Below, in pieces: positions 24,792 through 25,691 of a stretch of DNA of 64,000 bases. This stretch comes from Candidatus Xiphinematobacter sp. (lineage in GTDB: Bacteria; Verrucomicrobiota; Verrucomicrobiia; Chthoniobacterales; Xiphinematobacteraceae), in NCBI GenBank assembly GCA_016766635.1, contig CP068473.1:1-64000 (forward strand). The letters run 5' to 3'. The notes beneath the pieces were generated by a model. It worked only from the letters and a program-made list of their open reading frames with translations. It had not been told where the DNA came from and did not search any database. How positions within the stretch are numbered: the first letter of the stretch is position 1; every line of letters begins with the position of its first letter. The position numbers and the translations under genes were made by a program.

Positions 24792-25691
24792 TTATCTGGT
24801 CCATGGCTTCCTTGTTGAAGGAAGCGCTCCTCCCTCAGCATATCCGCTGGTATAATCGGTCGGACCAACCGCCCCGATCATTTCGCGCCGGGTAGCGATT
24901 CGCCACTTTCGGCTCATGCTCCTGCCCGTGTAACAACCCCAACTTTTGATGAAGGCCCTACGGGTAAAAACTCCCCTCCGAATTTTAGCCAGCTGATCTT
25001 CGTGCAGATAAGCCTTAGACGTTCCGTCGATTTCATTGCTATAATCAAACATGAAGCAGGCACGGTTAGCATGGCCGAAATACTCAAAGCCGTTGACCTT
25101 AACAAGGTTCCTGTTTTTAGACTGGGTAGCAGACCCTGAAGTAGTAGAAACTCCATTTCCATTTAGGTAGTCGATGATCTGCTGTCCTGAGTAAAACCAA
25201 ACCAACTCGACGTTGTATTTCCTTTGAATGGACCTAATACCGCAGATTATATTCCTCTCCTGACGCCGTTGCCGGCGCTCGTATCCTCGCCGGTAGACGA
25301 CCCAAGTAATTGGAAAGTCGGGACCGTACTGATCGCGCAACTGCTGAATGCGAACACGGCTGGCGCGCACGAAGTTCCCCCAATATTTGTCGTGCGGACA
25401 AGCCCTGCATCTCTCCCACTCCAGCAAAGATGGGCCCCCAGTTACGAGAACATATTCACTGCTCTGCTCAGATGGAACAGAAAAGCAATAAGAAGAAAAG
25501 AGTAGGACCTCTATTCCCAGGATAAGCAGGAACAGCGTAAAAACACCCGGGATGGCAGCATAGCCGATGTTCTTTGTAATAGGTGTGTGAAAGGCGGTTG
25601 GCGTTCCTCTTATCTTAGATAGCCTGCTCTGCAGAAGTGCCTTCGGCCTCTGCGCTCTACCTCTTCCTATATTCGAGAAGCAAGGTGGCAC
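24792..25691 (-). CDS. Unassigned membrane-anchored protein with a caspase-like His/Cys pattern
   Basis: I recognise no named family. A basic N-terminus precedes one strong hydrophobic segment at about residues 45-68, so the protein is probably anchored with its bulk outside the cytoplasm. The rest alternates predicted strands and helices. A strand leads to His207 in 'FEYFGHAN'; 46 residues later another strand leads to Cys253 in 'FIKSWGCYTGRS'. This resembles the His-then-Cys order of clan CD peptidases (caspase, gingipain, CHAT), where the Cys motif often reads x-C-x-T/S-G. An upstream strand 'YVLVTGGPS', a helix with 'NFVRAS' and 'ITWVVY' fit that fold. Peptidase activity is inference. It lies between tRNA-Glu and lysS, opposite strand to both. 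Confidence 0.55.
   Translation of the reverse strand: MPPCFSNIGRGRAQRPKALLQSRLSKIRGTPTAFHTPITKNIGYAAIPGVFTLFLLILGIEVLLFSSYCFSVPSEQSSEYVLVTGGPSLLEWERCRACPHDKYWGNFVRASRVRIQQLRDQYGPDFPITWVVYRRGYERRQRRQERNIICGIRSIQRKYNVELVWFYSGQQIIDYLNGNGVSTTSGSATQSKNRNLVKVNGFEYFGHANRACFMFDYSNEIDGTSKAYLHEDQLAKIRRGVFTRRAFIKSWGCYTGRSMSRKWRIATRREMIGAVGPTDYTSGYAEGGALPSTRKPWTR

What the first reader, a model, noticed from the sequence alone, without database searches (positions are those of the whole stretch)
24792..25691. Orphan membrane-anchored protein with a caspase-like His-Cys arrangement
The protein has one N-terminal membrane segment, then strands ending in His207 (FGHA) and Cys253 (WGCYTG), 46 residues apart. 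This order and the C-x-T-G context resemble clan CD peptidases such as CHAT or gingipain domains. The rest of the sequence fits no family I can name, and it is kept in a genome that is losing genes. In a symbiont, an extracytoplasmic peptidase could matter for host contact. Activity is inference.
Basis: partly seen in the sequence, partly recalled or inferred. Interest (0 to 1): 0.6.

Follow-up and report, generated by a model that had tools for sequence, protein, structure and literature searches.

The report
Conserved exported caspase-like peptidase family
A gene in a nematode-dwelling symbiont, thought to be an orphan, belongs to an unnamed single-copy family of exported proteins found across many Verrucomicrobiota, including gut Akkermansia-type bacteria, whose predicted fold and invariant histidine and cysteine mark it as a likely caspase-type protease.

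Summary
Two corrections are needed. The gene is not an orphan: 93 aligned members from Chthoniobacterales and from Methylacidiphilaceae-, Verrucomicrobiaceae- and Akkermansia-type genomes keep His207 and Cys253 without exception, 46 (rarely 47) residues apart. "Membrane-anchored" is uncertain: relatives carry Sec-type signal peptides, and the window gene's start is unclear. AlphaFold2 models (pLDDT 84.6 for the window protein, 90.2 for a relative) place His just after one core strand and Cys just after the next. The relative's model finds caspases first in a viral structure library (best E 7e-4). Against the PDB nothing is significant, but the second-best hit is Tce1, a putative cysteine protease with a clan CD-like dyad. 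No Pfam or NCBIfam family matches, and the canonical His-Gly is His-Ser/Ala-Asn. Best reading: a new clan CD-like cysteine peptidase family, exported, single copy, under purifying selection (dN/dS about 0.13 between two Xiphinematobacter species). Activity and substrate are untested. Presence in free-living relatives argues for an envelope role, not a host-specific one. A distant relative ends an RHS protein in one Akkermansia-type genome.

The parts
24792..25691 (-). whole ORF, 299 aa, GTG start (start codon uncertain)
   Evidence: residues 1-49 not conserved in relatives, no in-frame ATG/GTG/TTG between residues 2 and 79
25491..25544 (-). hydrophobic segment, residues 50-67; corresponds to the signal peptide of relatives
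   Evidence: helix 2-20 of model 1
24795..25472 (-). conserved exported domain, residues 74-299, predicted caspase-like alpha/beta fold
25389..25394 (-). invariant H100-D101 (HDxxWxNF) in the loop before the first long helix; possible pocket residues (inference)
   Evidence: 93 of 93 members
25122..25157 (-). insert, residues 179-190, almost absent from the 80 genome contigs relatives; the Idaho Grape symbiont has a related insert
   Evidence: low model confidence around it
25077..25103 (-). core strand, residues 197-205, ending just before the catalytic-type His
   Evidence: model 1 strand 148-156
25071..25073 (-). H207, predicted catalytic histidine (YFGH-S/A-N motif)
   Evidence: 93 of 93 members; also His in the RHS relative
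24942..24968 (-). core strand, residues 242-250, ending just before the catalytic-type Cys
   Evidence: model 1 strand 193-201
24933..24935 (-). C253, predicted nucleophile (SWGC-Y/H-TG motif)
   Evidence: 93 of 93 members; also Cys in the RHS relative

Best explanation
The gene encodes an exported cysteine peptidase with a caspase-like (clan CD) fold. It is the symbiont's copy of an undescribed single-copy family of Verrucomicrobiae. The protein is led out of the cytoplasm by an N-terminal Sec signal (or stays anchored by it). In the folded domain H207 and C253, at the ends of neighbouring core strands, form a Cys-His dyad: Cys attacks a peptide bond and His moves the proton. It probably cleaves or processes envelope or exported proteins of the bacterium itself. 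Shown: conservation, family, purifying selection, predicted fold with both residues at strand ends. Inferred: dyad geometry, proteolysis, substrate, cell location.
For: H207 and C253 invariant in 93 of 93 with fixed spacing 46/47; the spacing equals H133-C179 of the clan CD peptidase PmC11 (PMC4357240). AF2 models pLDDT 84.6/pTM 0.82 (window) and 90.2/0.89 (relative L002) show strand-His-small strands-helix-strand-Cys, the order described for caspases (PMC4357240). Foldseek viral library: best hit a C14 caspase, E 7.4e-4, probability 1.00; 9 of the top 12 are named caspase or metacaspase. PDB: Tce1 rank 2 (probability 0.96), whose authors call it a putative cysteine protease with His/Cys aligned on the dyad of a toxin's clan CD protease domain (PMC13323088); caspase-6 ranks 18 and 23, caspase-3 rank 42. 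Profile comparison with gingipain family C25 aligns His with His and Cys with Cys, weakly (P 0.042; 0.016 with the RHS relative added). Signal-peptide-like N-termini in relatives. dN/dS about 0.13 against the Idaho Grape symbiont (dN 0.105, dS 0.80).
Against: No PDB match at E <= 0.001, and the window's own model gave no caspase in the PDB top 50. TM-scores are only 0.3-0.5. No clan CD family in Pfam matches any of the 81 members. The canonical His-Gly is His-Ser/Ala-Asn. hhalign probability for the family is at most 2.8%. No activity data.
Confidence: 0.75

Rival explanations
1. A clan CD-like fold and Cys-His dyad, but the enzyme is not a peptidase in the ordinary sense: it is a transpeptidase, ligase or amidase acting on the cell envelope.
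For: Export, single copy and conservation in symbiotic and other members fit an envelope enzyme; legumain of the same clan has ligase activity (PMC9604545 abstract).
Against: No substrate or partner gene points to it; neighbours differ between lineages.
Confidence: 0.12
2. A Rossmann-like alpha/beta protein unrelated to clan CD, in which the His and Cys have another role (metal or ligand binding, or a different enzyme).
For: PDB searches list Rossmann-type dehydrogenases and UbiX-like proteins with similar weak scores.
Against: The viral library ranks caspases first with a significant E-value; element order and dyad positions match the caspase core; His and Cys are kept even in the divergent RHS relative, which has GHG and SCGC.
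Confidence: 0.1
3. A host-directed secreted protease of the symbiont, selected for contact with the nematode.
For: Probably exported and retained in both sampled Xiphinematobacter genomes.
Against: All sampled members of the order, and Methylacidiphilaceae-type and Verrucomicrobiaceae-type genomes, carry it, so it predates the symbiosis; no symbiont-specific expansion.
Confidence: 0.03

Closest known systems
Caspase/metacaspase family C14 (PF00656)
   Same: Predicted fold and order: strand-His, small strands, helix, strand-Cys; best structural matches.
   Different: No sequence match; an additional strand before the His strand; H-S/A-N instead of H-G; exported.
Tce1 / C80-type cysteine protease domains
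   Same: Tce1 is the second-best PDB hit, with a putative His/Cys dyad; C80 also has three strands before the His strand (PMC4357240).
   Different: 14% identity, TM 0.32-0.38; the window family is not an injected effector or toxin domain.
Gingipain family C25 (PF01364)
   Same: Exported bacterial clan CD peptidases; weak profile alignment matches His to His and Cys to Cys.
   Different: P 0.042 only; much smaller, no N-terminal subdomain; longer His-Cys spacing.
Clostripain family C11 (PF03415), PmC11
   Same: His-Cys spacing 46 in PmC11 (H133, C179; PMC4357240).
   Different: No profile similarity over the dyad; smaller.
Caspase-like domains of polymorphic toxins (Zhang et al. 2012, PMC3482391)
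   Same: A distant relative forms the C-terminus of an RHS protein (L096), as described for Tox-Caspase.
   Different: The window family is stand-alone, single copy across lineages, with a signal peptide and no RHS or toxin context.

Membership tests
Clan CD (caspase-like fold) | His and Cys after successive parallel core strands of a caspase-like sheet | tested here: met
   models (secondary structure only; strand order itself not visible); caspases lead
Clan CD (caspase-like fold) | invariant His then Cys in that order | tested here: met
   93 of 93
Clan CD (caspase-like fold) | His-Gly motif | tested here: not met
   H-S in 91, H-A in 2 members; the RHS relative has H-G
Clan CD (caspase-like fold) | significant match to a solved clan CD structure | tested here: inconclusive
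   none at E <= 0.001; Tce1 rank 2, caspases ranks 18, 23, 42; none for the window model
Clan CD (caspase-like fold) | cysteine peptidase activity | not testable with these tools
   needs an assay
Peptidase_C14 (PF00656) | Pfam profile match | tested here: not met
   no C14 hit in 81 members at E <= 1; hhalign probability 0.1%
Peptidase_C25 (PF01364) | Pfam profile match | tested here: not met
   no hit; hhalign P 0.042 with dyad aligned
Peptidase_C11 (PF03415) | Pfam profile match | tested here: not met
CHAT (PF12770) | Pfam profile match | tested here: not met
   the hhalign comparison set had only 3 sequences
DUF4347 (PF14252) | Pfam profile match | tested here: not met
Peptidase_C80 (PF11713) | Pfam profile match | tested here: not met
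   no hit in the Pfam scan; no dedicated profile comparison made

The most novel reading that the evidence does not exclude
A new family of exported clan CD peptidases, core to most Verrucomicrobiae outside families f6 and f9 (Opitutales-like) and retained in a 0.9 Mb genome, performs an important envelope-processing step specific to this lineage, and is the source or a sister of an RHS toxin tip in Akkermansia.
Probability: 0.25. Interest if true: 0.7.

Novelty: new variant of a known kind. Interest (0 to 1): 0.5.

Why it matters
It would add an undescribed, widely conserved peptidase family to the caspase-like clan, present as a single copy in Akkermansia-type gut bacteria and in a highly reduced symbiont. 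Persistence through genome reduction suggests an important envelope function that can be tested directly in a cultured relative.

Tried and rejected
Pfam, NCBIfam and PADLOC scans gave no meaningful match; weak thymidylate synthase and DUF6185 hits are at E 0.01-0.06 with nothing to support them. Sequence search of solved structures, single and profile: none. Plasmids, phages and viral contigs hold no relative, and plasmids none of the RHS relative. Profile comparisons with CHAT, C14, C11 and DUF4347 gave nothing. Gene neighbourhood: within one lineage it lies between a PLP-dependent decarboxylase and a biotin-synthase-like radical SAM gene with an agmatine-deiminase-type gene nearby, but in the window, Methylacidiphilaceae-like and Akkermansia-like loci the neighbours differ, so no partner is proposed. 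Guessed Akkermansia locus tags gave no papers. One search was an error of coordinates.

Full report
Observation. The ORF at 24792-25691 on the minus strand is open for 299 codons and reads as described: H207 in FGHA, C253 in WGCYTG, spacing 46. The window lies in a single-contig genome of 917,278 bp, the length given for 'Candidatus Xiphinematobacter luci' P23 (PMC7857533 table 1); this identification rests on length and kinship.

Not an orphan. A single-protein scan of genome contigs found 129 relatives, 80 kept, almost all labelled Verrucomicrobia, Spartobacteria or Chthoniobacterales; two labels from other phyla (L015, L042) are probably misbinned contigs. A profile search found 62 of 388 Verrucomicrobiota genomes positive, nearly always with one copy: all ten sampled genomes of the own order including the window's, most of families f7, f8 and f10, but no listed member of f6 or f9 and almost none outside the class.

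Conservation. In 93 aligned members H207, C253, H100, D101, W104, N106, F107, R114, R140, N209, D216, Y217, H230, S250, G273 and W297 never vary; His-Cys spacing is 46 in 89 and 47 in 4. C212 is lost in three. The Idaho Grape symbiont keeps the gene between the same neighbours (the lysS-ileS side and the beta-lactamase-fold gene), 81% identical over the domain, dN 0.105, dS 0.80.

Export. Upstream of the conserved Glu79, relatives have a hydrophobic core (92 of 93) preceded by a basic residue (91 of 93), small-residue motifs after it, and no lipobox. In the window gene the hydrophobic stretch is residues 50-67; the only common start codon in frame before residue 79 is the GTG at residue 1, and residues 1-49 are not conserved. 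So export is likely, anchoring undecided.

Fold. With 80 relatives, the window protein (residues 50-299) gives a model of pLDDT 84.6, pTM 0.82; the mature form of L002 (60% identical over the domain) gives 90.2 and 0.89. Order: strand, helices, strand, helices, strand, helix, strand-His, two short strands, helix, strand-Cys, helix, strand. [quoted passage not shown] Here one more strand precedes the His strand, as in the C80 domain described there. Foldseek against viral models ranks a C14 caspase first (E 7.4e-4) and nine named caspases or metacaspases among the first twelve. Against the PDB nothing reaches E 0.001; Tce1 is second (E 0.013), caspases 18th, 23rd and 42nd; the window's own model found none in the top 50. 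Tce1's description as a putative cysteine protease comes from PMC13323088.

Sequence comparison with known clan CD families. No Pfam clan CD family matches any member. Profile-profile comparison is empty for C14, CHAT, C11 and DUF4347, and weak for C25, where however His aligns with His and Cys with Cys (P 0.042; 0.016 with the RHS relative). Membership in a named family is therefore not claimed; clan-level kinship rests on fold and dyad, with H-S/A-N in place of H-G as a difference.

Function. No neighbouring gene is shared between lineages. Presence in lineages that are not symbionts argues for a role in the bacterium's own envelope. The substrate is unknown; a basic P1 preference is a guess from the invariant Asp101.

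RHS relative. In G218 (Akkermansia-type) a second, divergent copy (L096:4839-5924, E 1e-14 with a model that excludes it) follows an RHS core domain (TIGR03696), with YYGHG and SCGC at the dyad positions. This is the pattern reported for caspase-like domains in polymorphic toxins (PMC3482391).

Noticed in passing
L096:4839-5924 (-): C-terminal domain of an RHS core protein in an Akkermansia-type genome is a distant relative with GHG and SCGC motifs; a candidate polymorphic-toxin tip.
   Followed up: partly
G033:C1:3028934-3029101: Short fragment matching only the C-terminal part of the family (E 5.5e-10), possibly a remnant of a similar domain.
   Followed up: no
window:24623-24695: tRNA-Glu (CTC) between the beta-lactamase-fold gene and this ORF.
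   Followed up: no
window:25122-25157 compared with L085: Low-complexity Ser/Thr insert before the His strand occurs in both Xiphinematobacter species but almost nowhere else in the family.
   Followed up: partly
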